Positions 18,061-53,743 of a stretch of 64,000 nt of DNA are shown here, in pieces. Every line of letters begins with the position of its first letter. The first letter of the stretch is position 1. The stretch lies in assembly GCA_001972305.1 (NCBI GenBank), contig BDDD01005241.1, forward strand, positions 1-64,000, read 5' to 3'. This DNA is from Cephalotus follicularis (Eukaryota > Streptophyta > Magnoliopsida > Oxalidales > Cephalotaceae). The notes under the pieces are model-generated. The model worked only from the letters and a program-made list of their open reading frames with translations. It was not told where the DNA came from and searched no databases. The position numbers and the translations under genes are program-made.

Positions 18061-18356
18061 ATCTGTTTGATCCACAAGCACGCAAAGAATAAAGTGCACT
18101 AATAATCATTTGCTATCTTGCCATCTGCACACAGGTATTATAGATAATGACTAATCTCATAAAAGAACAGTAATAAACTGGTTAGCAAATATCATAGGCA
18201 TAATATACTGAGGCAAAACAGTCATATGATGACAGATGTAAATGAAGAGGAAGACGATTACAGATTCACTCTATAAGATACGAATTAAGGACTGATTAAT
18301 TTGAAACTATTCCACTGATTCCTGTAAAAGAAACTCCTCAAAGACATCCAAGATAT

Positions 18357-21273
18357 CTACGGTTGGTTCTCGTCTTCAGAATCCTGTAACCAACGTCGGA
18401 TCATTGAATCAAAGAGCCGATTAATTTTGATGGTAGGAATTTGAGAAATCTTATGCCAATCTTGTCCTGTGTCCTCTCCTTGTAGTAACGTTCTTCAAGA
18501 GCAGGGCATTACCATATGGACAACTCCTCTAATGACGCGGTCTGAAGAAGGTGGTCTGGCAGTTGCTTTAATTTTGGACATCTCCATAATTTTAAGCGGC
18601 GAAGACATGGCATTAGTCGGTAACCTTCCTGTCTTCTTCCCCTCATGATCCCGTAATCCCACTCTTCCCATTCCTCCATCGAGTTGAAAAAAAGTTCTTT
18701 CAACTTGGGGAATGCAATTCCTGATGCAGACGACAATGCTCTTTCTTCTTCATTAACATCAATATCATCTGTTTCTATTCCCCAGAATTCTGTGCCTACC
18801 CTTTTCACACTCAGCAAGGCTAGTATCATGAGGGACTCCAGGGATGGCAGTGTCCTTAAAGTAGGTAAAACCTTAGACAAACACCAACCGATCTCAACCT
18901 TCTTCAAGTTGGTTAATGACATGGTGATCCAATTATTGGGGAACAGGCTGGTGCTTCTGTACCAATATATTTCCAATTTTTCCAAGCTTGGAGGAGGTTA
19001 TATGGCTTCCATCACTTGTTCATCATTTCTCTCCTGCCCATTGTGGTGACCGAAATTTAGATGCAATCTACGGAGACTTTTCATGTTATCAAGTTGAGCT
19101 TTCTCAGCCTCACTCGCATCTTTCACATTTCCCAAACGTGCTATCCAAGGATTTCTCAGATTGATCAGTTTTCCCAAATCTTCCAGAGTAGATACTTCTT
19201 CTTTAACATTGTCATCACTACACACAGTGAAGCAATCTAGTGTACGAAGACAACTTAATCTACCAATCCCGCTTGGCATTAAATCTACGTCAGGTGTCCC
19301 TAGACACTCAAGATACCTCAAATTAATTAGATTTCCCAACCCGCGAGGTAGTCTTCGTAGATTTATACAATCATTCCGATTTAAGCTCTGTAGATTAAAT
19401 AAACCACACACTGTTTCAGGCAATTGTTCTAGCTTTGCATTATTGGACAGGTTGAGATACCGCAAATGTATCAATTTCCCCACACTTCTCGGAAGTTGTT
19501 TAAGTGGACCATCTTCAGAATTAAGCATTTTTGCACTGAAATCCAATGACCTTAAACATGTCAAATGATCAAATAATTCATGTACCACTGCATTGTTCAT
19601 TGGCGATGTTCGATTCCTGGACTCAACTATAAGACTACGTAGATTTTTTACTCCGCAAATGGAGGTAGGAATCGAGCCATTTTCGGCAAGCACAATCATT
19701 GTATGCCGAGCTTTTACACGAGAAGAGTCAACAACAAATTCTTCTCGACCGTTCAATTCCACAGTAAAGCATTCATTCTTTGTGAGAAATTGAGCGAAAT
19801 CATGGACTATGTCGTGCATCTTGCATTCTATCACCCTACCATCGTCATCATTTTCAAAATCTTGAAAGAAAGAACGCTTGGCTAAGTTGTTAAAGCACTC
19901 TTTGCCGTCCATTTCCATGTCTCTACTAGGTGTCTCCTTTAAAAAACCTTGAGCCATCCACAATTTGATTAGTCTATCTTTCTCTAGGATATAATCTTTC
20001 GGAAATATGGCGCAATATGAGAAACACCGTCTCATTTTGGCGGATAAATCATAATAGCTCAATAATAGATGGGCAAACGTATCTTCGGATACTTCTTCGA
20101 GCTCCCATACCTCACTTCTCAGCACACTCTCCCACTCTTGTCTAGTGGTTTGTTGCACAAGAGACCTCCTAGAACTTTTGCCGCAAGAGGCAGACCCTTG
20201 CACTTGGACGAGATTTCCTCACTAATGTCTTTCAAGTACTCACACTCTTCTTCACTCCTTCCAAAGAAGGCTATCCGAGTAAACAACGACAAACATTCCT
20301 TGTAGGATAACTGTTTCAGAGGGATCATGTCTGATGTTCCAATGATCCTTGCAACCTTCTCCTTACGCGTCGTAACCAAAATTCTACTTCCTGGTAAACC
20401 ACATTTCAAGGAGTTTTTCAAATGCTCAAAACTAGTAGGCTTTTCAGTCCACACATCATCAAGAACCATAAGGAACTTCTTGCCCCCAACCGAATCGCGT
20501 ATTGCTTGCAAAAGAGACTCCAATTCATTCAAATTGGGAACACTCCTTTCAAGACCTTCAAGTATTGCATTGGCAATTCTGATCTCATCAAAAGGATCCG
20601 AGACACACACCCATATCTTCTTCTCGAAATGGGCCTCAACCCTTTGATCATTGTAGACTAGTTGTGCCACAGTTGTTTTCCCAACACCCCCCATCCCTAT
20701 TATGGAGATGATATGGAGGGGTGGCCTTTCACTACTCTCACCCAACAACATGCCCACTATTTTTTCCACTTCCTTAGCTTTACCACACACCTCAGATTTA
20801 TCAATGATAGAGGCACTTATGTTCCATTCACCTACATGTTCAACACTAGTACTGACATTGAAATTTAAGTTACTCTTCTCGTTGTTAATATCATCAAGTC
20901 TTTTGCTTACCTCTTCGATGTCGACAACTATTTTATGATGCACAGGAACCCTTGCACACCACAAGCAACACACCTTCCACTTTGGCTTGGCACCCAAAAT
21001 CTGCGGTTTGAGGATTGAAGTGTTCCACTCATCCAACACGTCATCAATCTCATAGGAGACGTCTTTGAGCTTGCCTAACCATTGGGCAACACTGGCCTCC
21101 TTCACTTGTTTTCTCTCTGCATCCTCAAGCACACCTTGGATGGCTTGGAGATTGCCTGTGACCTTCTCAACTTGTTTGTCAAGACCAACCACGAGTAGCA
21201 CCTTTTGTTCTGCCTGTTTCAGCGTGATGGAAACCAACTGCTCCATGATTGCAGAAACAAGTGCATCGGCCAT
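18357..21273 (-). pseudogene. NLR-A: CC-NBS-LRR resistance gene, RGA type, three lesions
   Basis: An intronless CC-NBS-LRR gene beginning MADALVSAIMEQLVSITLKQ at ATG 21273. Visible parts: coiled coil (1-140) with the EDVID-like DVSYEIDDVLDEW (71-83); P-loop GMGGVGKTT (193-201); [19 protein letters not shown] (216-229); kinase-2 KKFLMVLDDVW (265-275); RNBS-B GSRILVTTR (295-303); GLPL CKGLPLAAKVLGGLL (358-372); RNBS-D CFSYCAIFPKDY; MHD MHDIVHDFAQ; then LRRs. Such proteins sense pathogen effectors and trigger cell death. Compared with NLR-B and NLR-C it has a 1-base loss near 20150 (frameshift just after GLPL), a nonsense codon at 18998-19000 and another at 18509-18511 (TGGGAA to TGGTAA). The old reading frame would have ended near 18357. 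Its start codon lies only about 17 bases from a LINE insertion, so the promoter has also been pushed away. Confidence 0.93.
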
Positions 21274-21289
21274 TCTTGAAGATGGTATT

Positions 21290-23986
21290 TTTTGCGACTG
21301 AAAGCATGCCTAGAGGCATCAATGCCACTATTTTGTGCCTTATCCCAAAATCTGCAAGCCCTTCATCGATGAAGGATTTTAGGTCGATAGCTTGCTGCAA
21401 TTTCTTGTACAAAACTATCTCAAAAGTGCTAGCTAGAAGGATCAAGTCCGTTCTGGGGAGTATCATTGATCCGGTCCAATCAGCCTTCATCCCGGGAAGG
21501 AATACCAGGGATAACATTCTGGTGGCGCATGAAATTTTAAGGGGCTACCAGGCGAGAGGTGGTGTTCCCAAGTGTGCGGTGAAAATTGATATTCATAAAG
21601 GCTATGACACTGTTAGATGGGACTTTATTCAGCAGCTTCTCAACCTCTTGAACTTCCACCCTTTGTTCATTCGGTGGGTCAGAACCTGCATCTCCAATGC
21701 TTCTTTTTCAGTGGCTGTTAATGGTAGTTTACACGGTTTCTTCAAGAGCTCTAGGAGCCTAAGGCAAGGAGATCCCATCTCTCCCTATCTGTTTGTGATC
21801 GGTATGAATTACCTATCTGGTATGCTTAAGGAAGCCTCTTCCAAGAGGGAGTTCCAGGTCCACCCAAGATGCAAACCCATGAGGCTCCACCATCTGTTAT
21901 TTGCAGACGACCTCATGTTATTCTCTGAGGCTGATATCCCCACCCTTGCTTTCTTCAAGGAAGCCTTGTCTGATTTTGCTGCGGTTTCGGGGCTGATTTC
22001 GAACCTGGAAAAAAGCCACATTTTTTTTGGGAATGTAGGGAGGGAAGCTAGGGAAAGGATCTCTACCCTGTTGAATATCTGTGAAGGCTTTCTTCTGGTT
22101 AGATATCGGGGACTCCCTCTTCTGGCCTCCAGACTATTTCATATGGATTGTAAAGTTCTCATTGACAAACTGATGAGAAGAACCTCCTCATGGGTGAGTA
22201 ACGTCCTATCGTTTGGGGGCAGGCTCCAGCTCCTAGCTTCGATTTTGTTTAGTATCCAGGTATTTTGGTGCACAGCATTTGTCCTCCCTGTGTTCGTTAC
22301 AAAGGAGTGCGACAGGATTCTTAGAAACTTCCTTTGGCATGGGGTAGGTAATACAAAGAAGAGTGGTAAGGTGGCATGGAGTAAGGTGTGCAGACCGAAG
22401 GATGAAGGAGGTTTGGGTATTAAGGACTGTAGGGCTTGGAACAAGGCAGCTATTATGAAATTCGGATGGGATTTATGCCGGAAGAAGGACTCCGTTTGGA
22501 CAAATTAGTGCCATGCCGTCTTCTTAAAGGAGACAAACTTTTGGGCTGCTAAGGTCACAAACAACTACTCTTGGAGCTGGAGGAACATTTTACGGTCCAT
22601 GAATCTTTTGGTGCATAGTGTGCTGTATGAGGTGGCTGATGGAAACTCTTTCTCTCTGTGGTTTGATTCGTGGTTTTTTGGGGAATCTATAGCCGATATT
22701 TGGCCGTAGGGTGATCCAAGATTCGGGGATACCAAGCAATGTGAAGGTGAGCAGCGTCATTTCTGCAACCTCTTGGGATCTTATCGACATCAGCTATGTA
22801 TCTAGCCGAATCCCTCTTGCGACAGGCTCTGACAAGATCCATTGGTTGAAGAAAGGAGGGAGCTTTACGATAAACGAAGCATGGCGGACCATCAATTCTC
22901 AGAGCATGAAAGTTGAGTGGAGTAAAGTCGTTTGGTTTCTGAGGTGTACACCTAAACATAGCTTCTGTATTTGGCTGGCTTTCAATAATGGCCATAGAAC
23001 ACTAGACAACTGTTTAGGTGGGGTGTGGTTACAAATAACAAGTGTGGCTTCGGATGTGGACAAGTGGAGTCTTTGGACCACTTGTTCTTCGAATGCTCCT
23101 ACCCGACTAGAATCTGGAACCATTTCCTGTCCTTATGTGGTTTTAAGAGGTCATGCTCTGGCTGGGGGGAGGAATCGGCTTGGTGTATTCAGAGGTTGAA
23201 GGGGAACTCCTTTAAGATATGGATTACTAAGCTCACTCTAGCTGCAGTTGTGTACCACTACTGGATTGAACGCAACAACTCCTTCCGCTACTTTGAAAAT
23301 CTGGTTCTTGCAATTGTGGCGGACATTGATGGCAAGTGCATGGGGTCTCTCCCATGTGGTTGACAATCAGACGAACATGGCTCTTTTCTCAGAATGGAAT
23401 CTACCCCCGTCTCTGCTTTCCTTGGATGGTTCAATGCCGCTGGGTTGTTGGTGAGCCTGCGACATGGAGTGCGCGTTAGGCGTACTGTTGGGCTGGTGGT
23501 GTATGTTTGCAGGTGGTGCCCATATAGCACTTGTGGATGAGAAGGATGGTGCGGCTTCGCTGCGTGCAGGTGAGGAGTGTTGTCTCGGATCTTCAGCGTC
23601 GACTGGGGCGAAGAGTACAGTGGTCTCTCGCCCAGGCATATGTTGGTTCGATGTGCGCCTTGGCAGCCGGGTATGGCGTCTATGGGCGCACTCCATGCGC
23701 TGGACTATTGATAGTCACGTGCTGTGCTCTATAGGCTAATGGTACTTTTTTTGCCAAATGTCCAGGTTTCCTTGTCGGGTATAATGTGATGTTTGTTATG
23801 GTTGTAATGTTTTAGATGCTCCTAGGTGCCTATAGTTAGGCTTTGGATTTTTAAGTCCTTATGTCCAGCTGATGTCTGTATTTTGGTGTTTTGTGTATTT
23901 TGCGTGGTTGTTCCACCTTTGATTTTTTGGGCAGTAGATTGTATTTTTATCCTTTAATATACTATCCAATTGTTCAAAAAAAAAAA
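21290..23986 (+). mobile_element. 5'-truncated L1-type LINE with poly(A) tail
   Basis: Plus-strand ORF2 remains begin inside the reverse transcriptase, with no endonuclease. They show LIPKSASPSSMKDFRSIACC, FIPGRNTRDNILVAHE, SLRQGDPISPYLFV and the catalytic FADDLMLF (about 21.90 kb). The frame runs to a stop at 22506; homology goes on in other frames, with the zf-RVT domain (CGFGCGQVESLDHLFFECSY near 23.05 kb). The element ends in a poly(A) run at 23976-23986. Paralogous unit 2 (34303-34345) carries the same flanks joined as GATGGTATTTTGTATAG…GACAGATAAAG, which shows the site before insertion; about ten target bases appear to be missing. Typical target-primed retroposition, dead on arrival. 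Confidence 0.88.
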
Positions 23987-25205
23987 GACAGATAAAAAAG
24001 AAGGAAGAATGTGATATAATGATTGTGGTTGTTTTCACTTGCTAATATATTGTGTTTACAACTGGCTGCTACAGTGTACCAACAATAATTGAATGCAGTT
24101 TCTCTCATTTACTTTTTTTTTTCTTCCCTTCTTTTAATCTTTAGTTAAATATATAATAGTGACATAGCAGTAAACTTATTATTTTTTATATTTTATATTT
24201 TATAAATTTAATCATTTAATTTGATAATTTATATATGTACATTATATATGTTAATTTTTAAGTAAATATACTTCATCTTTGTTATAATTGTTTATAAAAT
24301 AATATAAAGTGCCGTATTTGTTATGCGTAGATGAAATTGTTAAATATATGCAATTGGTTTAAAATTTGACATATATGATTTACATATATAGATTATCATG
24401 GATTCATGAAATAAAAGTTATGAATAAAAAAAAATGATGAGTTTAAAAACGATATAGCATGATATTGCCATGTTATGTCGCTTTATGAGTTTCGATGATT
24501 TGATAATACAAAGATATATTGTGTGTGATGTAAATAAACCAATCACCTGAATCATGTCAGGTATGACACAAGATTAAATAATATATTTATTAAACAAGTT
24601 TGGTATTCGTATTTAAGTATTTTACACAATTAATAATGGATAATGTTCGAGAATGATCGTTAAATTTGTCATAATACTATATGAATATGTCTGGTTGACA
24701 CAAATTGTCACTCTTACTACTGTTCCGTTTGGTAATGTTTTTGTATTAACAAAAGTATTTTTCGGACTCAATTTAGTATTTGGTAAAACTTTAGGAAAAG
24801 TAAGGAGCAAAACACTTTTTAAATTTTTATGAATTTTAATATTTGACAAAAAAAAATTATAATGTCTACTTTCAAAAATATATTTACTAAACACATATTA
24901 ACTGCAGAAGTAATTTTTGACAATATCTATTTTTATAAAACACACAGTATTAGCAAACAAAACCTAAGTGAGGCTAGAGAGCACAAAAATGAAGCCATTA
25001 AATTACAACGAAATCACATCGAGGCCCATAGGCCATATCAAATAAAATCCAAAACTCTCCCTCACAATGAAGCGTAGCTTCAATGACTGTAAATCTTCAA
25101 AACCCACACCATCATCAACATCAACATCCTCTTTGGCTTAATAATATCGTTTACTAAGCAATTATTTGACATGGGTTTATGCAGAATTAATTTTGGAATG
25201 AAACG
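23987..25205. other. Unit-1 spacer (ancestral NLR promoter side and X promoter)
   Basis: AT-rich DNA shared with 34320-35311 (unit 2) and 50735-52280 (unit 4). No gene. It should hold the divergent promoters of the NLR and of gene X. Confidence 0.6.
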
Positions 25206-27403
25206 ATGAAGCTAAAGGTAGTTTGCAAAAAAGTGTATGATTACATTCGTTATGATTTGAAGGAAATAGCGTTTCCATCTTCATTGCCAGATCCTCCTCA
25301 TATCAAAAAGCGCCTCAAACTCACTTGTCATGAGCGATATCTAGTATGTCTTTCATTCTTTCATTCTTTTTATTATGTATTTCATATTCATTAATTTTCT
25401 TAGCTGAATCTAATATAATCCATTATCCATATATTATTGGTATTCTGGTGTGTTAGATCAATGATATGCAAATTTTTACAAATTTTATTTTACCTAATGA
25501 TGTTGCAGTAACTCATGCATTTGTCCTATGGATGACAAACTGTGGCAATGTGTACATTATAAGTTAGGTTGCCATTTGGTAATGAAAATTTTGGGCATTT
25601 GTTACAACTTGTCCATTTGAATTAGTAAATTCGATTTGATGTCGCTCTATCCATTACTCTACAAAATTGAAATTTTTTTTCCATGCCGAGAATTCAAATA
25701 TGGTTTTGAACCGCGCGGTTCAAAACGAAATATTCTCAGAATTTCACTTGTTGGCATGTGATAACTGATAATTTCTATATGATGTCCTGGTGATGGTCTT
25801 TACCTGGTTTGAGCAATAAATTGTGGAGAAGAGTTTTTTAAAATGCTATTGATGGTACGGTAATTATTGGCCTATTATTGCATCTACTGATTACTGATGG
25901 TTCTCGTGTGTTTTTTCCTCCGCAATTGGTTTGATTTTAAGCTCCGTCTATGACCACCTCATGTGCTGAATAGTGCTTCATGACCTAGAAGATTGTGGTT
26001 GGAGATAAGTATCAAGTCTAACTCTTTCTGATTCTTTAGGTGTTAAAGGAGGCGTCTAGGCTTTATGCTGCGAGCTGGGTTCGTGATATTGGTCTCGATC
26101 TTAGGCCAAATGATTATAAAAAGGATGAAGAGACTGAGCAAGGAATGAAACTAATGAGAAGGAGCCCTCAGTTTTGGAAGATCTTGGTAAGAAACTTTTA
26201 CTTGATAATCTTAGAATTATGTTGTTAACATTGACTTAGTCTAGAAGAATTTGCATTGCTGTTTTGGTGTGCTTACTTTAATTTCCTTTTGTTCTTCACT
26301 GCTCATATGTGGTAAACCATTAGTATAAATGGTAATTTTAATTATTTTATTGTAATTTAGTGGGACTGTCTGCAATCTTTACTCAGTTTTGAGCAATTGA
26401 CATGAAGGTTAAGGAGTACTGGAAGGTAAGGCAGACCGCAGTTGTATTGTAAATGTTGCTTTGAGTGCTTCTCTAATATATTATTACTGGTGTGATTTCG
26501 CAGTAATGTACCTACTATTTATTTATTTTTAACATATCGATATTCTCAAATCACATTGTCTAATCCACCCACAACTGTTGCAGTATTGGAGCTTAGTTAG
26601 GTTCTAAAGTTACATTGCCTGCCAGCACGGTTTCTTCATTCTTGGCAATATTCTATCTGCGTGTAGAGACAAGAGCTAGCATTGTATCTTAGTTTGTCAT
26701 CGCTTAATTAAGAGGTCAGGGAAGGTATATTTAAGGAAGATTGTAGAGTTATTTCAGCATCCTTGCAAAGGATTATTATTATTATTTTCACATGTTATGT
26801 TGGGTTCATTGGAAACAGACTAAGATTGTGTCCTTGATTTGGATTTGGTGAAAAGACAATTACACAAACAATCCACAATTTTTTAACATTAAATAATGAT
26901 TATTTCATAACCAAAGATAAAAACTTTACTCGAGAACAAGTATGTCAATAACATTATATAACTTGGTTAACAAATTATTATATATAGATAAGTGGATTCA
27001 TCAAATTATAAAACTACAGGGGGTAAAACCAAGTATTGCTGGGGAAGGGCAGTGAGGATGAATCCCCACTGCGCTCCCCGATTTTAACAGGGAATCCACA
27101 CCCTGTTTAGAGCGGGGCAGAACATTCTGTGTGTGTGGATCAAATTGTCATCCTTACTATTGCATGCTTAAATTGGTTCAATATTATTGACTGGGAATAA
27201 AATTGACAGCTGTGGCTGCAAGAGGTGGTATGGAGACATTGAGGCCTGCTTTGCAGAAGGTTTACATGACAAGAGCTTATGCTTATAAAGATGCTCTCAA
27301 AAGTTTTATTGAAGGGTATCAAGATGGTGTCCAGCAGGTCATGGGGAAGACGGAAGATAAAAAAAATGAACAAGAAGCTGATCTAACCAGGAAATCGACC
27401 TGA
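25206..27403 (+). pseudogene. Gene X copy 1, frameshifted
   Basis: Exons 25206-25343, 26040-26186 and 27210-27403, with GT-AG introns in the same places as X-2 and X-3. Exon 1 gives KVVCKKVYDYIRYDLKEIAF then SLPDPPHIKKR; exon 2 gives VLKEASRLYAASWVRDIGLD; exon 3 gives GGMETLRPALQKVYMTRAYA and SFIEGYQDGVQQVM. Exon 2 has lost 16 bases after GAAGAGACTGA relative to X-3, so exon 3 would be read out of frame. Exon 3 itself is intact and keeps the longer end (…EQEADLTRKST). Intron 2 carries an old MITE-like stretch (about 27020-27160), present in all three copies. Function unknown; see X-3. Confidence 0.8.
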
Positions 27404-27739: not shown

Positions 27740-27749
27740 TGTAACGCCT

Positions 27750-27813
<64 letters not shown>

Positions 27814-30800
27814 AAAAAAAAGGAAAAAGAAAAGAAAAGACATGGGACGCGAGAGAGACGCGGGAGAGAGAACCAGAGAGCGGGAAGAAGACGGCGCCGG
27901 ATGAAGGCGTAGGATCGGGAGATGGCGCGAGCAGGTCTTCCTCCAGCCGCCGGTAACCTCCTTTCCCTTTCTTCTCTTTTCTTTTCCTTCTTCTCCCCGT
28001 CACTGTCGCCACTGTCACGCCACTTCCGTGCGTTCCATCGCCGGATTCAATCACGGCTGGAGCGTGTTTTCGTTGTGGAGACCAGCTCTTCCCCTTTTGG
28101 TGGCTGTTGAGGCGTTGTTCGGCCGGGAATGGTTGCCTACGTGATGAAGCCTGTGACACGGCGTTTCACGCCGAGTCACGGCGAGTCTCGATCGCCAACG
28201 GCTTGATGCGAGTCTCGGTCACCAACGGCTTGATCGAAGGATTTTAATGCCGGTTATGGCGTGATCGGAGCTAGATGAACTGGTCGGAGCTCCGACGAGT
28301 TGAACTAGCGCCGATTCTCGGTGAGTTACGGGTGGAGACGCCTTAGCCGACTGTTTTGTGACACTTTTGTGAAGTGGCTGGAATTATGGATGTCCGGTGA
28401 GTCAACTCAGTGAGTTGACTCATTGTCGGCTGTGACTACGCGATTCACGGCGAGTCGCGGCTACCTGTGTGTAGATCGTAACGGAATGTGTGATGATTAT
28501 TGCAGTGATGCAAGGAGAAAGAGAACTCTGTTGACACGAGATGGAGCTGTGCTCGTAACGACGAGTGAAGCTTAGAGGAGGTAGCAGTTCATGGATCCAG
28601 CTGCAAGTCCTCCTGACTCGCAAGCTCAACCGTTAACAGGTAGGGTATACATTTGCTCCGATGGTACGTGCTCAGATAACTATGGACTTGATCCCATTCG
28701 TGTACGCCGGTATTTCTGCCAAACGATAACTTTGGACATGGTTTTCACTGAATTGCGAACTGTTTTGCAAAACGATATTTCTGCCAAAACCGTTGACGCT
28801 TTCTTCTTAATTGTCGACGCTTTTGTGTGTGAAACATGAATAGTCGACACTTTACGCTTTTAAACTAAACTAGTCGACGCTTAGTACCCTTTTCAGCCCA
28901 AACACACTGTTTTACATGGTTTTTGATCCAAAATGTTTTTATCTTCAAAATGATTCCATAGGAAGCCTCCCTAAGGCTTTGTAGCCTATGAAAATCCTCT
29001 TTTAATACTTTTAATCTCCAAACCGATTCTCAAATGGATATCAAAATAGTTCTCAATGGTTTTCGAAATGGTTTTCAATGGATGGTTAGGATGACTCGAT
29101 TGGGATATCTGGATGCATATATCTTAGTTGGACTTCTTTTCTATTGTTTTTCAACTTTGATAGGGACCAATGAATGGAAAATGGTTTATGGAAATGAAAA
29201 TGAAAATGGAAATGGAAATGGGTTATGGAAATGGAAAATGGTTTATGGAAATGGTTATAGTTATGGAAATGGTTTTAAATGGTTTTGACGGATGTGAATC
29301 CTATGTGATCCTTTATGGTAGGTCCCTATCTTTTAAATGGAAATATGGTTATGTGTTACGATTATGATATGGTTATGATTATTGATTGCTATTGTTTGAG
29401 ACATAATGAGATAACCCATTCATAATCTTCATTTCCGTCATGGGGATTATGAGTGTCAAACCATATCTTATGGAATTAATGGAATATGATATCATAGACT
29501 GGGACCAAGTGAACAAGTCTATGATATTATTGGACTGGGACCATTGTGAACAAGTCTAATTATGGTTATGGTAAAGGCTGGGACAATAAGTGAACAAGCC
29601 TTATGGTTATGGTATGGTAAGGGCTGGGACCAAGTGAACAAGCCCTATGGTATGGTAAAGGCTGGGACACTTTGTGAACAAGCCTTATGGTTATGGTATG
29701 GATGATGTGGTTAGTGTTATCTCGACCTCACATGTCTACGACACCGAGAGTGCGTAGATAGTGGGATGGACCTTATGGATTGTTTGACACATGGTATGGT
29801 TATGGATTGTTATGGATTGTCTGCAGGCCTATGGCCTTTGATGTGATTAGGACTAGCCAAGTATACCACTGCTTAGGGATGGTTGTATACTAAAGCTGTT
29901 CGTAATTGTCATTCATATACATGACATTACATGGCATATGGATATATTGTTCACTATATGTCATATTATTTGATGGTTATATTGGTTACATGCATAACAT
30001 ACTGCTACCCTGTTGCATGCATGGCATATCGTTACATTGTTGCATCGCATAGCGTATAATATAGCTTTCCACCATACGGATTGTACAGCTACGGTTAGGA
30101 TAGAACGGTTACGGATTGGATGGTTACGGATCGAAGGGTTATGGATCATACGACTATGGATATTGATGGTGGTTGTAGCTAGAGAGCCCAGTGTTAGAGA
30201 AGTTCCATATTCTCTTCCCTGTTCTACTTACGAATGCTACTCTAGTCTACCAGTAGAATGAGGACCTCTGCCTGGAACGCCAAGAGCGTCTAGCCTGTTA
30301 CCTCGGCAGGAAAGGCCGAGAAAAGCTTACCTGTTACCTCGGCAGGAAAGGCCGAGAAAAGTTTACATATGCTTTGGAAGGACTTTGGAATGATATGGAC
30401 GCCGGATGATAATGGAATTGTGTTGGAATCATATGGATATGGTTAGTGAATGGTGCCTGCGGGAATGGCACGTTTCTAAATGCTAGTTTCATAGCAGGGT
30501 TATATCGATTGTCGTGCATACATCTCTTATGTTGTACATGCATCTCATATGTCTACTTATCTGTTGCACTTCTATATGTACCATGCATATGTGTATCCTA
30601 CATAACCTTCGGGTTGCAGACCCATTGCATTGTATTGTAATTTAATGGGTCAGGTTCAAGTCCAGGTGATGCGCAACAGTGATCAGTCGGGCTAAATCGA
30701 AGGGTAAGAATTTACATCTCCTCCGACCTACTTTGTATAAATGTAATATTGTAAAAAGGGACAGGTATTGAAAATGGTTGTATTTATGGTTATTGTATAA

Positions 30801-31244
30801 GAGACAAATTTAAAGATATATTAGAGTTATGTTTATATTCAGCTATTGACCTACCGGCTTGTGGCAGTGCTAGATTTATATTTGTGTTGATGAAAAGGAC
30901 ATGGATGAATCCTGCTATTGTGATTATCGATGAGATGAGTTGTGGTTGTTGAGGGCTGAGCCTAAATATATATATAAACTGACTCCTCCTTAATGTGGAC
31001 ATATATAAATTGTGTTTTCCTTTACAGGGAGGTTTAGTCCGATAAACAAATATTTCATGCCGAAATTTCGGGAGATTTTAAGAGTTAGTTTTTATATGGA
31101 TTGACTAATTTCGTTCGCTTGACTTTGATTTAAAGCTTCGTTTTTATAGCACAATCTAGAGTATGATTTATATGATGAAACGACTGAATGAAAGGTATCT
31201 CACGCGTCAGATCGTTTGGGGGGGGGGGGGTTCGGGTTTTGACA
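27740..31244. mobile_element. 3.5-kb solo LTR, Gypsy (Tekay/Del-like)
   Basis: The element starts TGTAACGCCTCGG and ends GGGTTTTGACA (TG…CA). It is flanked by the 5-bp target duplication GGTTC (27735-27739 and 31245-31249). The same site is uninterrupted in unit 2 (38007-38015, TTTATAGATTCTCTCCCACC), which confirms the limits. It has no gag or pol. Length and ends fit the long LTRs of Tekay/Del chromoviruses. It contains a (TA)n run at 27751-27810, about five imperfect repeats of the CTGGGACnnnGTGAACAAGyC type (29490-29690), a doubled TACCTCGGCAGGAAAGGCCG (about 30299 and 30332) and a G-run near 31219. It looks like one complete LTR left after recombination. Confidence 0.78.
29490..29690. repeat. 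Tandem repeats inside the solo LTR
   Basis: About five copies of a 40-50-bp unit built on GGCTGGGACC…GTGAACAAGCC followed by TATGGTTATGGTA. Spacing and spelling vary. Confidence 0.75.
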
Positions 31245-32240: not shown

Positions 32241-32272
32241 CCTATACTACACAATATACAAATTTTTTTTTT

Positions 32273-40523: not shown

Positions 40524-41270
40524 AACAAGAACACAATGTTGTTGCAAAAAATTTGACCTTTAAAAAAAAAACATGGTATGTTGACCATTTTTACGAAGAA
40601 AATCGTATGATGGCTACTTGAATAAATTTATTATCATCATTGATGTTAAGATTAGATTGAAAAATATCTTAAGACTTTGGTTTATAATGAAAGAATATCG
40701 TAGAGACTATTGATTGAAATGTTACAATCCAAAACATTGTTCTAAAAAATTATAAGATCATCTATTATCTAAAATAAACAACATAATTTGTCTTTTTATG
40801 CATCTATTTTCTTCTTTATACCTAGCTCTATTTCTCTCTCTAAAAACCCTCTCTCTCTCTCTAGACTTCAAAAAAAGAAGAAAACCTTTAGGAAAAAAAA
40901 GTTTGATAATATTAAGTGTCTTTTAAAATTTTTTGGAAGGATAAAATTATCAAACCAAACCGTTCTTAGTTTTGTTTTTCTAACAACAACTTTTTTGTGT
41001 TATTGTTATGTGAACGTTGAACGCCACCGTAAATTTTTTTTACAACAATCAAAAACTTAATTACCAAACACAAAATTAATGTTGTGTGATATCTAACAAC
41101 AAACCACAATCTCAAACATAGCTTTAATGAGAGTTGAGAGTATATCTAAACAACAATACCAAAAAATATATGAGAAAAATAAATATAATGAATCAACTTA
41201 GTTAATTTTATATATATATATATATATAAAATTATTTATGTACTTTAGAAGTCAGTCCAACAAATATAAT
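40524..41270. other. Unit-2 tail, no gene
   Basis: AT-rich, with a CT-rich microsatellite (about 40830-40862) and a (TA)n run (41211-41228). It leads into the 3' flank of NLR-B. Confidence 0.6.
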
Positions 41271-41506
41271 AAATAATCTCATAAAAGAACGGTAATAAAC
41301 TGGTTACCAAATATCATAGACATATTGGAACGAGGAAAAACAGTAATATGATGACAGATGTAAATGAAGAGGAAGACGATTACAGATTCACTCTATAAGA
41401 TACGAATTAAGGACTGATTAATTTGAAACCATTCCACTGATTCCTGTAAAAGAAACTCCTCAAAGACATCCAAGATATCTACGGTTGGTTCTCTTCTTCA
41501 GGATCT

Positions 41507-43829
41507 TTAAATAAAAGGGCCGTTAATACTGATGGTAGGAATATGAGAAATCTTATGCCAGTCCTGTCCTGTCCTCTCCTTGTAGTAACGTTCTTCAAGA
41601 GCAGGGCATTCCCATATGGTCAAATCCTCTAATGATGCGGTCCGAAGAAGGTGGTCTGGCAGTTGCTTTAATTTTGGACAGAAAGATAATCTTAAGCAGC
41701 GAAGACATGGCATTAGTTGGAAACGTTCCTCTCTTCTTTCCCTCATGATCCCGTAATCCCACTCTTCCCATTCATCCATCCCGATGAAAATGAGTTCTTT
41801 CAACTTGGGGAATGCAATTCCTGATGAAGACGACAATGCTGTTTCTTCTTCATTAACATCAATATCATCTGCCTCTATTCCCCAGAATTTTGTGCCTACC
41901 CTTTTCACGTTCTTCAAGTAAAATATACCGAGGGACTCCAGGGACGGCAGTGTCCTTAAAGTAGGCAAAACCTCACACAAACACGAACGGATCAAAACCG
42001 TCTTCAAGTTGGTTAACGACATGGTGATCCAATTATTGGGGAACAGGCTGGTGCCTCTGTACCAATATATTTGCAATTTTTCCAAGCTTGGAGGATGTTG
42101 TATGGCTTCCATCACTTGTTCATCATTTCTCTCCTGCCCATCGTCCTCACCGAAATCTAGATGCAATCTACGGAGACTTTTCTTGTTATCAAGTCGAGCT
42201 TTCTCAGCCTCACTCGCATCTTTCACATTTCCCAAACGTTTTATCGAAAGATTCCTCAGATTGATCAGTTTTCCCAAATCTTCCAGAGTAGATACTTCTT
42301 CTTTAACATTGTCATCACTACACACAACGAAGGAGTCTAGAGTACGAAGACAACTTAATCTACCAATCCCGCTTGGCATGAAATCTACCTTAGTTGTCCC
42401 TAGACACTCAAGATACCTCAAATTGATTAGATTTCCCAACCCGCGAGGTAGTCTTCTTAGATTATAACAACCATTCAGATTTAAGCTCTGTAGATTAAAT
42501 AAACCACACACTGTTTCAGGCAATTGTTCTAGCTTTTTATTATCGGACAGGTTGAGATACCGCAAATGTATCAATTTCTCCACACTTCTCGGAAGTTGTT
42601 TAAGTAGATCATCTTCAGAAAAAAGCGTTTTTGCACTTAACTCCAATGACCTTAGACATGTCAAGTGATCAAATAATTCATGTACCTTTGCATTGTTCAT
42701 TACCCATGTTTCACTCATGGACTCAACTATAAGACTACGTAGCTTTTTTACTCCGCAAATGGAGGTAGGAATCGACCCATTTTTGGAAACCACCATCATT
42801 GTATGACGAGCTTTTACACGAGAAGAGTCAACAACAGACTCTTCTGGACCGTTCAACTCCATAGTAAAGCATTCATTCTTTGTGAGAGATTGAGCGAAAT
42901 CATGGACTATGTCGTGCATCTTGCATTCTATCACCCTGCCATCTTCATCATTTTTAAAATCTTGAAAGAAAGAACGCTTGGCTAAGTTGTTAAAGCACTC
43001 TTCGCCGTCCATTTCCATGTCTCTACTAGGCGTCTCCTTTAAAAAACCTTGAGCCATCCACAATTTGATTAGTCTATCTTTCTCTAGGATATAATCTTTC
43101 GGAAATATGGCACAATATGAGAAACACCGTCTCATTTTGGCGGATAAATCATAATAGCTCAATAATAGAGGGGCAAACATATCTTCGGATACTTCTTCGA
43201 GCTCCCATACCTCACTTCTCAGCACACTCTCCCACTCTGGTCTAGTGGTTTTGTCGCACAAGAGACCTCCTAGAACTTTTGCCGCAAGAGGCAGACCCAT
43301 GCACTTGGACGAGATTTCCTCACTAATGTCTTTCAAGTACTAACACTCTTCATCACTCCTTCCAAAGAAGGCTATCCGAGTAAACAACGACAAACATTCC
43401 TTGTCGGTTAACTGTTTCAGAGGGATCATGTCTGTTGTTCCAATGATCCTTGCAACCTTCTACTTACGCGTCGTAACCAAAATTCTACTTCCTGGTAATC
43501 CACATTTCAAGGAGTTTTTCAATTGCTCAAAACTAGTAGGCTTTTCAGTCCACACATCATCAAGAACCATAAGGAACTTCTTGCCCCCAACCGAATCGCG
43601 TATTGCTTGCAAAAGAGACTCCAATTCATACAAATTGGGAACACACCTTTAAAGACCTTCAAGTATTGCCTTGGCAATTCTGATCTCATCAAAAGGATCC
43701 GAGACACACACCCATATCTTCTTCTCGAAATGGGCCTCAACCCTTTGATCATTGTAGACTAGTTGTGCCACAGTTGTTTTCCCAACACCCCCCATCCCTA
43801 TTATGGAGATGATATGGAGGGGTGGCCCT
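41507..43829 (-). pseudogene. NLR-B: CC-less NBS-LRR relic with a long intact LRR part
   Basis: From the stop at 41507 up to 43336 the minus strand is open for 609 codons: end of NB-ARC (GLPLAAKVLGGLL, CFSYCAIFPKDY, MHDIVHDFAQ) and the whole LRR, ending HIPTISINGPFI. Upstream, [23 protein letters not shown] and MVLDDVW are still readable. However, there is a TAG in GECEYL-like sequence (about 43341), a second in VTTRK (about 43464) and a frameshift near 43650. At about 43829 NLR sequence stops abruptly after PPLHIISII and joins the spacer just before gene X-3 (CTTCAATGACTG). The coiled coil, start codon and promoter are therefore deleted. The LRR is about as long as in NLR-C and longer at its end than in NLR-A. 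Confidence 0.92.
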
Positions 43830-43965
43830 TCAAGCTTCAATGACTGTGCGAAATCTTCAAAACCCACACCATCATCAACAGCAACATCCTCTTCGGCTTA
43901 ATATTATCGTTTACTAAGCAATTATTTGACATGGGTTTATGCAGAATTAATTTTGGAATGAAACG

Positions 43966-46354
43966 ATGAAGCTAAAGGTAGTTGGCAAAAAAGTGTATGA
44001 TTACATTCCTTATGATTTGAAGGAAATAGCATTTCCATATTCATTGCCAGATCCTCCTCATATCAAAAAGCGTCGCAAACTCATTTGGCATGAGCGATAT
44101 CTAGTATGTCTTTCATTCTTTCTTTCTGTTTATTATGTATTTCATATTCATTAATTTTCTTAGCTGAATCTAATATAATCCATTATCCTTATGTTATTGA
44201 TATTCTGGTGGGTCATTAGAACTTTATCAAGTCTAAAAAGTAGTGGGGTTTTGTGTTAGATCAATACGAATTTGCTTTTACCTGATGATGTTGCAGTAAC
44301 TCATGCATTTGTCCTAAGGATCACAAACTGTGGCAATGTGTACATTATAAGTTAGGTTGTCATTTGGTAATGAAAATTTTGGGCATTTGGTACAACTTGT
44401 CCATTTGAATTAGTAAATTCGATTTGTTGTCGCTCTATCCATTACTCGACAAAATTGAATTTTTTTTTCCATGCCGAGAATTCAAATAAGGTTTTGAACC
44501 GCTCGATTAAAAATAAATATTCTCAGAATTTCACTCGTTGGCATGTGATAACTGATAATTTCTATATGATGTCATGGTGATGGTCTTTTCCAGGTTTGAG
44601 CAATAAATTGTGGAGAAGAGTTTTTTAAAATGCTATTGATGGTACGGTAATTATTGGCCTACTATTGCATCTGCTGATTACTGATGGTTCTCGTGTGTTT
44701 TTTCCTCCACAATTGGTTTGATTTTAAGCTCCATCTATGACCACCTCTTGTGCTGAATATTGCTTCATGACCTAGAAAATTGTGGTTGGAGATAAGTATC
44801 AAGTCTAACTCTTTCTGATTCTTGAGGTGTTAAAGGAGGCGTCTAGGCTTTATTCTACGAGCTGGGTTCATGATATTGGTCCCGATCTTAGGCCAAATGA
44901 TTATAAAAAGGATGAAGAGACTGAAGATAAGCCCAAGGGAGCAAGGAATGAAACTAATGAGAAGGAGCCCTCAGTTTTGGAAGATCTTGGTAAGAAACTT
45001 TTACTTGACAATCTTAGAATTATGTTGTTAACATTGACTTAGTCTAGAAGAATTTGCATTGCTGTTTTGGTGTGCTTACTTTAATTTCCTTTTGTTCTTC
45101 ACTGCTCATATGTGGTAAACCATTAGTATAAATGGTAATTTTAATTATTTTATTGAAATTTAGTGGGACTGTCTGCAATCTTTACTCAGTTTTGTGTCTT
45201 CAATACGTGAGCTGTAACATTTTTAGTTAGATTAGAAAATATTGTATCTAAGAACTGTGACATTCTTCCTGAGATGAGAAAACAATGAATATACCTTCCA
45301 AAATACTAGAGTAATAAGGATTAAGTCTTCCTGTTAGAGGCTTGTGCTATTACAAAGATGAAGAGCAATCGACATGAAAGTTAAGGAATACTGGAAGGTA
45401 AGGCAGACTGCAGTTGTGTTGTAACTGTTGCTTTGAGTGCTTCTCTAATATATTATTACTGGTGTGATTTCGCAGTAATTTACCTACTATTTATTTATTT
45501 TTAACAAATCGATATTCTCAAATCACATTGCCTAATCCACCCACAACTGTTGCAGCATTGGAGCTTAGTTAGGTTCTAAAGTTACATTGCCTCCCAGCAA
45601 CGGTTTCTTCATTCTTGGCAATAATCTATCTGGGTGTAGAGACAAGAGCTATCATTGTATCGTTGTCTGTTATCCCAGCTATTGGTTGGCTTAATTAAGA
45701 AGAAAGGAAAGGTATATTTAAGAAAGATTATAGAGTTATTTCGGCATATTATTATTATTATTATTATTATTTTCACATGTTATGTTGGGTTCGTTGGAAA
45801 CAGATTGAGATTATGTCCTTGATTTGGATTTGATGAGAAGACAATTGCACAAGCAATCCACAATTTTTTAACATTAAATAATGATTATTTCATAACAGAA
45901 GATAAAAACTTTACTCGAGAACAATTATGTCAATAACATTATATAACTTGGTTAACAAATTATTATATATAGATAAGTGGATTCATCAAATTATAAAACC
46001 ACAGGGGGTAAAACCAAGTATTACTGGGGAAGGGCAGTGAGGATGAATCCCCACTCCGCTCCCCGATTTTAACAGGGAATCCACACCCCGTTTAGAGCGG
46101 GGCAGAACATTCTATGTGTGTGGATCAAATTGTCATCCCTACTATTGCATGCTTAAATTGGTTCAATATTATTGACTGGGAATAAATTAACAGCTGTGGC
46201 TGCAAGAGGTGGTATGGAGACATTGAGGCCTGCTTTGCAGAAGGTTTACATGATAAGAGCTTCTGCTTATAAAGATGCTCTCAAAAGTTTTATTGAAGGG
46301 TATCAAGAAGGTGTCCAGCAGGTCATGGAGAAGACGGAAGATAAAAAAAAATGA
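43966..46354 (+). CDS. Gene X copy 3, conserved plant protein of unknown function, near-intact, three exons
   Basis: Exons 43966-44103, 44827-44989 and 46194-46354, with GT-AG introns whose phases fit, give 153 aa. The first part is MKLKVVGKKVYDYIPYDLKE, then LPDPPHIKKRRKLIWHERYL. Exon 2 gives VLKEASRLYSTSWVHDIGPD, LRPNDYKKDEETEDKPKG. Exon 3 gives AVAARGGMETLRPALQKVYM then SAYKDALKSFIEGYQEGVQQ. It is basic at the N-terminus, acidic in the middle and helical at the end; no signal peptide or membrane segment is seen. I do not recognise a named family. One extra A in the A-run near 46350 shortens the C-terminus compared with X-1 (which keeps 10 more residues). The acceptor of exon 2 is GAG rather than TAG. 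The NLR-B deletion ends only about 135 bases upstream, so its promoter is probably much reduced. May or may not be expressed. Confidence 0.65.
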
Positions 46355-47218: not shown

Positions 47219-47593
47219 ATGCTAAAAACCAAAATCCGTCCAATCACCATGTCTGAATCGCATTACAATGAACCTCTACAACTTACCGATAATTGGCAAG
47301 ACAATTACGGAAGTGGCTATCGTAATAATCGCGATTATTGGCATGCAAGAAGAGCATTTTTGAACAGCTACCATTTAACTGAAAAAAATTGTTTCAGACA
47401 TAAGATAAAGAGGTCGGTGAAGGAGCTCAAGGATGCAACCAAGGGAGTTGTTTTGGAAATTCGTAAAGGGCTGTCTAAAAGAAAGATTGGCATTAGGGTT
47501 TTCAGGTTTATGTTTCATTTGCCATCGTTATTAATTTTTTCTAGTATACGTTGTTTTGTTCCATGTCTTAATAAAAGAGAGCTGTTGGAGTGA
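47219..47593 (+). CDS. Gene Y copy 3, conserved plant protein of unknown function, intact
   Basis: 124 codons from ATG 47219 (MLKTKIRPITMSESHYNEPL), or 114 aa from the inner ATG at 47249. Body: DNWQDNYGSGYRNNRDYWHA, RRAFLNSYHLTEKNCFRHKI, KRSVKELKDATKGVVLEIRK, GLSKRKIGIRVFRFMFHLPS, LLIFSSIRCFVPCLNKRELLE and a stop in the same place as Y-1. One exon. There is a hydrophobic patch near the end (FHLPSLLIFSSI) that could be a weak membrane contact. Agreement of Y-1, Y-2 and Y-3 in frame, with mostly conservative changes, supports a real protein. No known domain. Confidence 0.65.
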   Translation: MLKTKIRPITMSESHYNEPLQLTDNWQDNYGSGYRNNRDYWHARRAFLNSYHLTEKNCFRHKIKRSVKELKDATKGVVLEIRKGLSKRKIGIRVFRFMFHLPSLLIFSSIRCFVPCLNKRELLE

Positions 47594-48412: not shown

Positions 48413-49042
48413 CAATTCCAATTTGTATGATTGTAAACTTGAAGAACAGATATGGAGTATGGACAATGGATGCAATAATGAAACCTATTATTGAGCCTGA
48501 TATGGTAGCGAGAACAACACTCACAGGGATAAACCACCTGCAACAATAACATAATATGGTAGCTCAAAAAGAAGTCCCCATCTATAATATGCACCTGCAG
48601 TTTGTTGCGAGATAGGGAGTATTTATAATGAATACCACTGAAGCATTTTCTGCAAAGTGACGGCTTGTCCGAGTTGAGAAAATATCAAGCAAGGAAGCAA
48701 AAGGGAAAAGACCAACTGCAAGACATAGACGTATGTGAGTTAGAAATAACCAAGCCTGGTCATACAATTAGAATGATAATATGAGAGCAGACATGAACAT
48801 GGTAGTTAGAGTAATAAAAACAAATACCCCATTTAGAAGTTTTCGTCCGCTTGCGGGGTAATATGTTAACATACTTGGAGGCCATGAGGAATCCCAGAAA
48901 GCACATGGTGAATACTTTTTTTTTTTTGGATAAGGATGGTGAATACTTTTGCAATGGGCATGACTGCTATCTTTATAGACCCCAACAAAGACTCTCCTGA
49001 AGCAGACGCAGGATTATCCATTGCCAACAATAACCTCTCCAT
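48413..49042 (-). pseudogene. PILS (PIN-LIKES auxin carrier) gene fragment, first three exons
   Basis: Minus-strand exons 49042-48828, 48715-48636 and 48537-48413, with GT-AG introns, read as a PIN-LIKES protein: ESLLGSIKIAVMPIAKVFT, MCFLGFLMASKYVNILP, then LVFSLLLPCLIFSQLGQAVT, LQKMLQW, then WFIPVSVVLATISGSIIGFI and YLFFKFTIIQIGI. PILS proteins sit in the ER membrane and hold auxin inside the ER. Exon 1 has a 31-bp insertion event (16 bases plus a 15-bp duplication, 48920-48950) and one extra C near 48855, both frame-breaking. The exons after NIGNVPLVLI are absent: the third donor (GTAAGTTC at 48412) leads nowhere. A host-gene fragment carried into the NLR array. Confidence 0.86.
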
Positions 49043-49840
49043 CTGCAAGCTTATCGATTACGCCCACCCAGTAGGTGCTGAAGGTGATAGATCAATAATT
49101 TATACAAAAGGATTAAGAAGACAAAGCTAGGATGGTTGATCACATATATAATTGGAATTTAAAATAGAAGATGAAAAGAAACAAACCTGATATATTAAAG
49201 GACACCATTAAACATTAAATCAACGCCATCCACATGCAGTGATTACAGAGAGTTTGTAATCTCCGACTAGATATATAGGTGGAGAGGGAGGGAGGGGGAG
49301 AGAGAGAGATTATGTTTGTAAAAACACTCCATTAAACCGCACGTTGAATCAGAAAGCAAATTGATATCATTTCCAAGCAGTTTCCATACATTAAAGTTAA
49401 AATTCAAGAATCAAACCCCTTAATATCCTCCACTGCTTGTTTACGACGTTGAATCTGAAGTTCCAGAATGTGTATTAGTGTTGCTCTAGCCTGGGAAAAA
49501 AATAAACTCACTATTAAGAATGTTGACGAAATCGGAAGAGAGGTACATAGGTGACGCCGGCGTGGGAAAGAGAGAAGCCGATCGGAAGAGAGAGCGTTTT
49601 TTTCTTTTCGATTTCGCCTTCTTTTATTTATTACTCTCAGTTTCCAATTTGCAAAAACATCGCTTGATTGAGAATATTTTAACTGAACCAGCAGCTTGAT
49701 TGTTCGGGTTTTTCAGAGAGACAGAGTGAGCGTGTTTTATTAGATGGGTTTGCTAATTTAAAACTGAGCGTCGCGCTCATACCAACTAACCCGATATATA
49801 TTGGATTTATATTTAGTTAATTATTCAGCCCAAGATAGAT
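49043..49840 (-). promoter_or_regulatory. Leader and promoter region carried with the PILS fragment
   Basis: The phrase CTTGCAG just before the ATG is a likely leader acceptor. Farther right is a GA-rich run (49276-49308) and a leader-like block with GTGACGCCGGCGTGGG (about 49552-49567). No other coding sequence is seen. It ends where unit-4 NLR flank begins at about 49840. Confidence 0.4.
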
Positions 49841-49953
49841 AATGACTAATCTCGTAAAAAAACAGTAATAAACTGGTTACCAAATATCATAGGCATAACA
49901 TACTGAGGAAAAACAGTCATATGATGACAGATATAAATGAAGAGGAAAAACAA

Positions 49954-50730
49954 TCATATGACGTCCAAGTAACCGTCTTCATAATCCGGAAACCAATGTC
50001 GGTTCATTGAATCAAAGGGCCAATTAATTTTGATGGTAGGAATATGAGAAATCTTATGCCAGTCCTGTCCTGTCCTGTCCTTGTAGTAACGTTTTTCAAG
50101 AGCAGGGCATGCCCATATGGACATATCCTCTAATGATGCGGTCCGAAGAAGGTGGTCTGGCAGTTGCTTTAATTTTCGACAGTTCCATAATCTTAAGCGA
50201 CGAAGACATGGCATTAGTTGGAAACGTTCCTCTCTTCTTTCCCTCATGATCCCGTAATCCCACTCTTCCCATTCCTCCATCCCGATGAAAATAAGTTCTT
50301 TCAACTTGGGGAATGCAATTCCTGATGAAGACGACAATGCTCTTTCTTCTTCATTAACATCAATATCATCTGTTTCTATTCCCCAGAATTCTGTGCCTAC
50401 CCTTTTCACCTTCGGCAAGGCTTTTATCATGAGGGTCTCCAGGGACGGCAGTGTCCTTAAAGTAGGCAAAACCTCACACAAACACCAACCGATCAAAACC
50501 GTCTTCAAGTTGGTTAATGACATGGTGATCCAATTATTGGGGAACAGGCTGGTGCCTCTGTACCAATATATTTGCAATTTTTCCAAGCTTGGAGGAGGTT
50601 GTATGGCTTCCATCACTTGTTCATCATTTCTCTCCTGCCCATCGTCCTCACCGAAATCTAGATGCAATCTACGGAGACTTTTCTTGTTATCAAGTCGAGC
50701 TTTCTCAGCCTCACTCGCATCTTTCAATTT
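49954..50730 (-). pseudogene. NLR-C: LRR end only
   Basis: Open for 257 codons from the right junction to the stop at 49954: KDASEAEKARLDNKKSLRRL, then HLDFGEDDGQERNDEQVMEA, then LPTLRTLPSLETLMIKAL and a C-terminus ending DYEDGYLDVI, which is probably the ancestral end. At about 50730 the NLR breaks off after CATCTTTCA and joins the unit spacer (TTTTATTTTTTATTTATAT), matching 24180. Everything upstream (CC, NB-ARC, first LRRs, promoter) is deleted. Confidence 0.92.
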
Positions 50731-51282: not shown

Positions 51283-51542
51283 GCATGATATTGCCATGTT
51301 ACATCCCTTTATGAGTTTCGATGATTTTATAATACAAAGATATATTGTGTGTGATGTAAATAAACCAATCACCTGAATCATGTCAGGTATGACACAAGAT
51401 TAAATAATATATTTATTAAACAAGTTACGTGTTCGTATTTAAGTATTTTACACAATTAATAAAGGATCATGTTTGAGAATGATCGTTAAATTTGCCATAA
51501 TACTATATGAATATGTCTGGTGGACACAAATTGTCACTCTTA

Positions 51543-52128
51543 CGGATGACAATGGGGCGGATCGAGGCGGATTTTGTCATTCCTGTCCCACCCCATCAAT
51601 GAGCGGGGCGGGAACGGGACGGAGTTTCCTTTCCCCATGACAGGATGGGGCGGATGCGGAGATGCCATTTCTTTGACGGGGCGGGGGCAGGGGCGAGGAT
51701 GGCAAAATTTGTCTCGATCCACATCATCGTCATCCCTAACCTCATGTATGTATAAGCTAAACACAACCACATGACTAGTAGTTTCTTTTATTCTTAAACT
51801 GACATATTAATATGCTTAAAGTTTAGGGAAAAAAAAGATTATATGTATTTGTTATACATAAATATATATTACAATAAATTTTAGATATAATATTACAATA
51901 ATATTTTGACAAATTCATTTATTGATATATCATATATGTGATAAAATATATAAAGGCGAAACGGGGTGAAGCGGTGCAGGGTGGGGCAAACACTTGTTTT
52001 ACCCCCTCCCCACCTCCAACTGTGGGATATATTTTTTTCTCATTCCTATCCCAATCCTCAAACGGGACGGGGATTCCCCACCCCATTTGAAGGAGGAAAG
52101 CGGAGACGGAGAAAATTGCCGTCCTTAG
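51543..52128. mobile_element. 586-bp Mutator-like non-autonomous element
   Basis: Ends CGGATGACAATGGGGCGG and ATTGCCGTCCTTAG are inverted, with GGGGCGGG-rich subterminal blocks and an AT-rich core. Perfect 9-bp target copies TCACTCTTA flank it (51534-51542, 52129-52137); 9 bp is the Mutator size. Unit 1 has the empty site (GTCACTCTTACTACTG near 24708). No transposase. Confidence 0.72.
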
Positions 52129-52317
52129 TCACTCTTATTACTATTATTACTAAGTGTGCGTTTAGTAATGCTTTTGTATTACCAAAAGTACTTTTCGACC
52201 TCAATTTAGTATTTGATAAAATTTTAACAATATTACTTTTGGTTTTAAAAGTATCAAAAGCAAAAAAAAAAAAAAATCAAAGTTTTAATATGTTAATAAT
52301 GATCTCATTGTTTTCAC

Positions 52318-53739: not shown

Positions 53740-53743
<4 letters not shown>

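What the first reader, a model, noticed from the sequence alone, without database searches (positions are those of the whole stretch)
18062..52280. Four-unit NLR-X-Y tandem array in mosaic decay
The same gene order appears four times, but each unit kept a different subset: unit 1 has all three genes broken, unit 2 lost its NLR, unit 3 kept X and Y, unit 4 kept only an LRR end and spacer. No NLR survives intact while Y-3 does. This suggests repeated unequal exchange with relaxed selection on the NLR. It is a readable record of how one NLR cluster died.
Basis: seen in the sequence. Interest (0 to 1): 0.7.

Follow-up and report, generated by a model that had tools for sequence, protein, structure and literature searches.

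The report
Plant NLR tandem array, partly broken
A stretch of a plant chromosome carries several damaged copies of one block made of a disease-resistance receptor gene and two passenger genes; it is a good example of ordinary birth-and-death evolution, but some of the apparent damage looks like sequence error and the receptor family is not clearly dead.

Summary
"Four" is set by the window: the unit reaches left to about 17 kb, a fifth piece lies at 67.05-68.23 kb of the same contig, and contig C3640 carries more. Trees of adjacent segments disagree, so exchange between units is supported. "Relaxed selection" and "died" are not supported for the family: four NLR copies show no frame-breaking indel against each other where neighbouring sequence predicts 4-6 per pair, and no lesion before codon 938 is shared between the NLR copies compared. 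The three stops of NLR2 and the only stop of the full-length C3640 copy belong to a local cluster of changes to A on each contig's own strand, more like miswritten bases than mutation. Firm damage is mostly structural: a LINE before NLR1 plus two frameshifts, and separate large deletions elsewhere. It is an ordinary birth-and-death cluster of CC-NB-ARC-LRR genes.

The parts
   Evidence: matches C3640:103607-104807 at 90%; from 16922 matches C898 at 91%
18371..21273 (-). NLR1, CC-NB-ARC-LRR pseudogene: stops at codons 761 and 924, 1-base deletion at codon 379, 2-base insertion at codon 938 (numbering)
   Evidence: Rx_N and NB-ARC by Pfam; lesions
21291..23986 (+). LINE insertion 18 bases before the NLR1 start codon, A-tail at its 3' end, about 10 target bases lost (ends read by eye)
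   Evidence: empty sites in C3640 and C589; RVT_1 and zf-RVT
23986..24717 (.). NLR upstream spacer, unit 1
   Evidence: matches 34331-35081 and 50726-51543
25206..27364 (+). X1, three-exon passenger gene, 16-base deletion in exon 2
27740..31245 (.). insertion with TG...CA ends and 5-base duplication GGTTC (LTR-type, possibly a solo LTR), in unit 1 and not in units 2 and 3 or C485
   Evidence: ends read by eye
31896..32240 (+). Y1, TGA at codon 31
34298..35081 (.). unit 2 spacer with only the first 7 bases of the NLR
35301..37661 (+). X2: 5- and 19-base deletions and stops (start inferred from the alignment with X3)
38223..39083 (.). solo-LTR-like insertion, TG...CA ends, 5-base duplication GTTCA (ends read by eye)
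39528..39968 (+). Y2, open, C-terminus altered
41266..43832 (-). NLR2, lacks CC and start; joined to the X side at 43832|43833; three stops that look like base-writing artefacts
43966..46354 (+). X3, three presumed exons, splice signals kept, 3' end shifted by an A-run
47249..47593 (+). Y3, intact 114-codon frame
48553..49363 (.). insertion absent from the 98%-identical C3640 copy
49794..50730 (-). NLR3, LRR end only, open frame
   Evidence: same junction in C3640
50726..51543 (.). unit 4 spacer

Best explanation
A CC-NB-ARC-LRR receptor gene with a two-gene passenger block (X, Y) was multiplied in tandem and to a few other places in a plant genome. Units then exchanged sequence. Separate deletions (junctions read by eye: little or no microhomology, one in A+T-rich sequence), a LINE and LTR-type elements removed or interrupted different parts of each unit (shown from junctions). 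The NLR reading frame was kept during most of the divergence between copies (shown for four copies), so the losses are late, copy-specific events. NLR1 and the C589a copy are dead, others are truncated, and a full-length copy on C3640 may still be functional (inferred). X copies decayed as passengers; Y was under purifying selection at least part of the time (inferred from Ka/Ks).
For: Array and extra units. Conflicting trees: U2 groups with U3 in D (94/92 in the five-row tree; U2 with hU5 rejected at p 0.049) but with hU5 in E (98/95; U2 with U3 rejected at p 0.012), while U2 and hU5 share a 19-base deletion in D. Junctions and empty sites. Among 8 aligned NLR copies no lesion before codon 938 is shared; the TGA at codon 956 and the indels at codons 950-961 are shared and are taken as alternative C-termini. 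0 frame-breaking indels in all 6 pairs of hA, U3, hB (LRR part) and C339 against 4.2-5.7 expected. Y pooled Ka/Ks 0.43, X 0.85. C3640 repeats 46773-52288, less one insertion, at about 98%, including the unit 4 junction.
Against: AU tests were chosen after seeing the trees and one is borderline. The indel yardstick comes from A+T-rich, largely non-coding, overlapping pairs. Pooled NLR Ka/Ks is 1.15, not below 1, and private codon changes in the LRR (36 silent, 67 replacing, 2 stops) are close to neutral, so relaxation in the latest period is possible. The full-length C3640 copy does have a stop as the sequence stands. No expression data.
Confidence: 0.68

Rival explanations
1. One reading: selection on the NLR was relaxed and the whole cluster died, leaving passengers.
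For: Every NLR in the window is structurally incomplete or frameshifted; pooled Ka/Ks near 1; private codon changes in the LRR near neutral.
Against: Frame kept in four copies; the stops of the two best copies are doubtful; X decayed as well; shortened copies on C339 and C3640 are open throughout.
Confidence: 0.2
2. Parts of the mosaic are assembly errors: chimeric joins and miswritten bases.
For: Changes to A on each contig's own strand in NLR2, hA and hU4; at 4 of 6 sites where NLR2 and hA both depart from the unanimous other copies and from each other, both read A on their own, opposite strands. The 43832|43833 join was seen once only. C589b differs from NLR2 in 7 of 742 bases, 6 of that class, and lies next to a gap.
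Against: The unit 4 junction and the unit order recur on C3640; two insertions have target duplications; none of the 11 non-NLR pairs shows the A/T direction bias at p<0.05, and contig-wide singleton spectra are ordinary.
Confidence: 0.12

Closest known systems
RGA08 NLR cluster of wild banana (PMC3017797; outline and abstract seen)
   Same: tandem CC-NB-LRR genes and pseudogenes, duplicated intergenic sequence, unequal recombination, repeat insertions, differences between haplotypes
   Different: larger cluster (13 and 18 predicted genes and pseudogenes on two haplotypes); its abstract does not mention an X-Y passenger block
Birth-and-death NLR clusters of cacao (PMC12405883; passages seen)
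   Same: local duplication followed by pseudogenes; unequal crossing over named as the likely mechanism but, in the passage seen, not explicitly tested
   Different: genome-wide survey across genotypes, not the anatomy of one array

Membership tests
CC-NB-ARC-LRR (CNL) plant NLR | Rx_N-type CC domain | tested here: met
   NLR1 PF18052 70.8 bits; NLR2 and NLR3 lack this part by truncation
CC-NB-ARC-LRR (CNL) plant NLR | NB-ARC domain | tested here: met
   NLR1 159.9 bits; NLR1 and NLR2 are in the genome-wide list of 44 matches, a lower bound
CC-NB-ARC-LRR (CNL) plant NLR | winged helix and LRR | tested here: met
   NLR2 WH_DRP 98.3 bits and LRR_R13L1-DRL21 112.7 bits; NLR3 LRR_R13L1-DRL21 98.8 bits
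NLR birth-and-death cluster | close tandem paralogues with broken copies among them | tested here: met
NLR birth-and-death cluster | exchange between units | tested here: met
   conflicting trees and a shared deletion; groups chosen post hoc, one p-value borderline
NLR birth-and-death cluster | copy-number difference between haplotypes | tested here: inconclusive
   C3640 may be a haplotig or another part of the array; the 4.8-8.8 kb flank shows no second copy
NLR birth-and-death cluster | diversifying selection on the LRR | tested here: inconclusive
   pooled pairwise Ka/Ks 1.22, but private changes are not replacement-rich, and doubtful bases inflate replacements

The most novel reading that the evidence does not exclude
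The NLR family yields maintained short receptors: in-frame deletions gave a CC-LRR frame (517 aa, C3640) and a WHD-LRR frame that keeps the original start codon (547 aa, C339), both open throughout, besides the open LRR-only NLR3. They could act as decoys or regulators of an intact relative.
Probability: 0.08. Interest if true: 0.55.

Novelty: new member of a known kind. Interest (0 to 1): 0.3.

Why it matters
It gives a legible example of how tandem receptor blocks are cut up by separate deletions and insertions after exchange, and a warning: premature stops in recent NLR paralogues can come from miswritten bases, so counts of NLR pseudogenes in such assemblies may be too high.

Tried and rejected
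Identity of X and Y: no Pfam family reached its cut-off; solved structures gave nothing for X up to E 1 and only two matches at E 0.56-0.60 for Y; the Y model is unusable (mean pLDDT 40.2), so no fold search was run. RNA families: none at the gathering score. Plasmid search for NLR2: no match, as expected for a plant gene. U2's left neighbour 33540-34330 is partly made of genome-wide repeats, and none of the other matches listed (40 of 5254 candidates scored) ends at 34298, so a transposon boundary was not found there.

A global bias towards A was considered and rejected: over all NLR singletons A and T are 82 and 80, and contig-wide singletons are 77 and 79 in C5241 and 41 and 33 in C3640. 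Of 19 pairs tested for A/T direction, 3 were under 0.05, all NLR pairs involving hA or hU4; the pair NLR1-hA was not (19:14, p 0.49). Of 9 pairs from other NLR families, 2 were. In one triple of other NLRs all three members had more private changes to A than to T (64:32, 43:34, 44:28), in a second set L027 had 9:0 but L026 28:31. A first impression of positive selection from pooled Ka/Ks was not upheld by private changes. The count of hA changes in 43133-43832 printed as 9 includes 2 beyond the end of NLR2; one search gives 7, of which 6 are to A.

Literature: one search listed 15 of 34 papers, one search listed 3, (ambiguity codes and false stops) listed 2, neither opened. I did not search for this particular array in print by name, since the species is not known.

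Full report
That it is a plant is inferred from its genes and size; the species was not identified. Names used below: U1-U5 are units on C5241; hA, hB, hC, hU3, hU4 and hU5 are copies on C3640; C589a, C589b, C339, C485, C824 and C898 are copies on those contigs. Codon numbers are those.

Observation. Self-BLAST of the window gives clean parallel diagonals. On the + strand the unit reads NLR (minus strand), upstream spacer, X (three presumed exons, plus strand), Y (plus strand). Unit 1: 18144-33537; unit 2: about 34298-41136; unit 3: 41266-47883; unit 4: 49794-51543. The long matches are 87-95% identical, the short spacer matches 78-95%. Pfam finds Rx_N and NB-ARC in NLR1, and winged helix and LRR in NLR2. 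X and Y match no Pfam family at its cut-off.

The array is larger than stated. Sequence left of NLR1 (from 17140 against C3640, from 16922 against C898) is also repeated. C5241:67053-68234 is another X-side piece beyond the window. C3640 from 126908 downward repeats 46773-52288 at about 98%, less an insertion at 48553-49363, and then continues with more units to 94371. C485 has the X-Y block with no NLR match in the 20 kb compared; C589, C339, C824 and C898 have pieces. The genome searches score only the best candidates, so copy numbers are lower bounds. C3640 could be the other haplotype or another part of the array: a 4-kb flank of the window has no second copy, so the assembly does not hold both haplotypes there.

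What broke each unit. One search compares junctions with sites that lack the change; ends were read by eye. A LINE (RVT_1, zf-RVT) sits 18 bases before the NLR1 start codon. Unit 1 has a 3.5-kb TG...CA insertion with a 5-base duplication between X and Y; unit 2 has a 0.86-kb one with a 5-base duplication (solo-LTR-like). NLR2 is joined to the X side at 43832|43833 with at most one base of homology. NLR3 is cut at 50730 in A+T-rich sequence, and the same cut is present on C3640. Elsewhere, hB has lost its middle in frame (517-aa CC-LRR frame) and C339 has lost the part between about codon 3 and the winged helix, also in frame (547 aa). These breakpoints differ, with one exception: unit 2 and C339 break within two bases of each other just after the start codon, unexplained.

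Exchange between units. Trees were built for four segments, and for D and E again on five shared rows. In D, U2 groups with U3 (94/92); holding U2 with hU5 is rejected at p 0.049. In E, U2 groups with hU5 (98/95); holding U2 with U3 is rejected at p 0.012. The groups were chosen after seeing trees. The NLR-LRR and C trees are weakly resolved (1 of 5 and 0 of 5 inner branches starred). Within D, U2 and hU5 nevertheless share a 19-base deletion in X exon 3, and U5 and hB share a 1-base deletion in X exon 2. So segments have mixed ancestry, and some X lesions were inherited or copied, not independent.

Lesions of the NLR copies. One search aligned 8 copies (C589b was not included). Before codon 938 no stop or frame-breaking indel is shared by two copies. 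Shared are the TGA at codon 956 (U4, hU4, C589a) and indels at codons 950-961, taken as alternative C-termini. NLR1 has stops at 761 and 924, a 1-base deletion at 379 and a 2-base insertion at 938; C589a has stops at 324, 345, 358 and 573, a 40-base insertion and a 10-base deletion; NLR2 has stops at 245, 308 and 348; hA has one at 258. hB and C339 have none.

Selection. Pooled pairwise Ka/Ks is 1.15 for the NLR, 0.81 in NB-ARC/WHD and 1.22 in the LRR, 0.43 for Y and 0.85 for X. Pairs are not independent. Counting only codon changes private to one copy, the LRR shows 36 silent, 67 replacing and 2 stops, a replacing share of 0.65 against 0.77 for random single-base changes without transition bias (p 0.005); I therefore do not claim positive selection. 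A better test of coding constraint is frame-breaking indels (50 bases or less). Nine pairs of non-NLR segments show 40 per 635 substitutions. On that rate each of the six pairs among hA, NLR2, hB (LRR part) and C339 should show 4.2-5.7, and all six show 0 (Poisson P 0.003-0.016 each, not independent). Pairs with NLR1 or C589a show some, though fewer than expected when paired with the longer copies. Pairs with the short U4 and hU4 fragments are uninformative (P 0.11-0.58). The yardstick segments are A+T-rich and largely non-coding, which may raise their indel rate.

Doubtful stops. Between 43133 and 43832, NLR2 differs from the unanimous other copies (of U1, hB, C589a, C589b, C339, where present) at 6 sites, and all 6 are changes to A on the + strand of C5241. 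hA differs at 7 sites, of which 6 are to A on the + strand of C3640, although C3640 runs in the opposite direction. Three sites (43342, 43462, 43651) are the same in both, one giving T and the other A on the coding strand where the other copies have G; these are the first bases of the three stop codons of NLR2. Over the whole NLR there are 6 sites where NLR2 and hA both depart from the unanimous others and from each other, and at 4 of them both read A on their own strands. The only stop of hA (base homologous to 43611) is of the same class. hU4 has 11 of 13 changes to A. Pair counts in the direction 'both contigs read A' against the reverse are 22:5 for NLR2-hA (p 0.0015) and 11:2 for U4-hU4 in the LRR (p 0.022); NLR1-hA is 19:14, and none of 11 non-NLR pairs is under 0.05. 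I know of no natural mutation process that would follow the orientation in which a contig is stored. The likeliest cause is ambiguous or uncalled bases, perhaps from reads shared between paralogues, written as A. I could not see raw data: the sequences held contain only A, C, G, T and N. The bias is local, not global: over all NLR singletons A and T are 82 and 80; in 42231-43132 NLR2 has 3 of 8 and hA 1 of 12 to A; in other NLR families it is seen in 2 of 9 pairs. C589a and NLR1 show no such excess over all their changes, and both have frame-breaking indels as well.

Conclusion. The finding is a genuine tandem array of a CNL receptor with passengers, in a state of partial loss through exchange, separate deletions and element insertions. 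This is the known birth-and-death mode; RGA08 in banana (PMC3017797, outline and abstract seen) is a close precedent, and cacao NLRs (PMC12405883, passages seen) show the genome-wide counterpart. The claim that the cluster died through relaxed selection on the NLR goes beyond the evidence.

Noticed in passing
36176-36224: X2 exon 2 carries six private changes within 50 bases, all to A (five G>A, one T>A), including a stop; similar in flavour to the NLR stops, though G>A may also be ordinary mutation.
   Followed up: partly
34298; C339 near 837458-837466: Unit 2 and the C339 copy both break 7-8 bases into the NLR coding sequence, although the sequences beyond the break differ.
   Followed up: partly
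C589:787496-788237 (L041): NLR piece 99% identical to NLR2, beside a 119-base run of N; 6 of the 7 differences are of the doubtful class.
   Followed up: partly
5440-6399 and 8834-9661: Open frames for an EDR2 C-terminal domain protein and a rhomboid protein; possible synteny anchors.
   Followed up: no
53737-64000 (on to 66524 in the contig): LTR retrotransposon with gag, reverse transcriptase and integrase domains; 9 of 536 bases differ in one stretch of its LTR pair.
   Followed up: partly
54075-54444 and 61916-62129: Tandem repeats of 122 and 23/92 bases within the span of the retrotransposon.
   Followed up: no
C485:322088-326562 (L036, L037): X-Y block with an open Y and X exons without an obvious lesion in the alignment, no NLR match in the 20 kb compared; may be the working X-Y locus.
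   Followed up: partly
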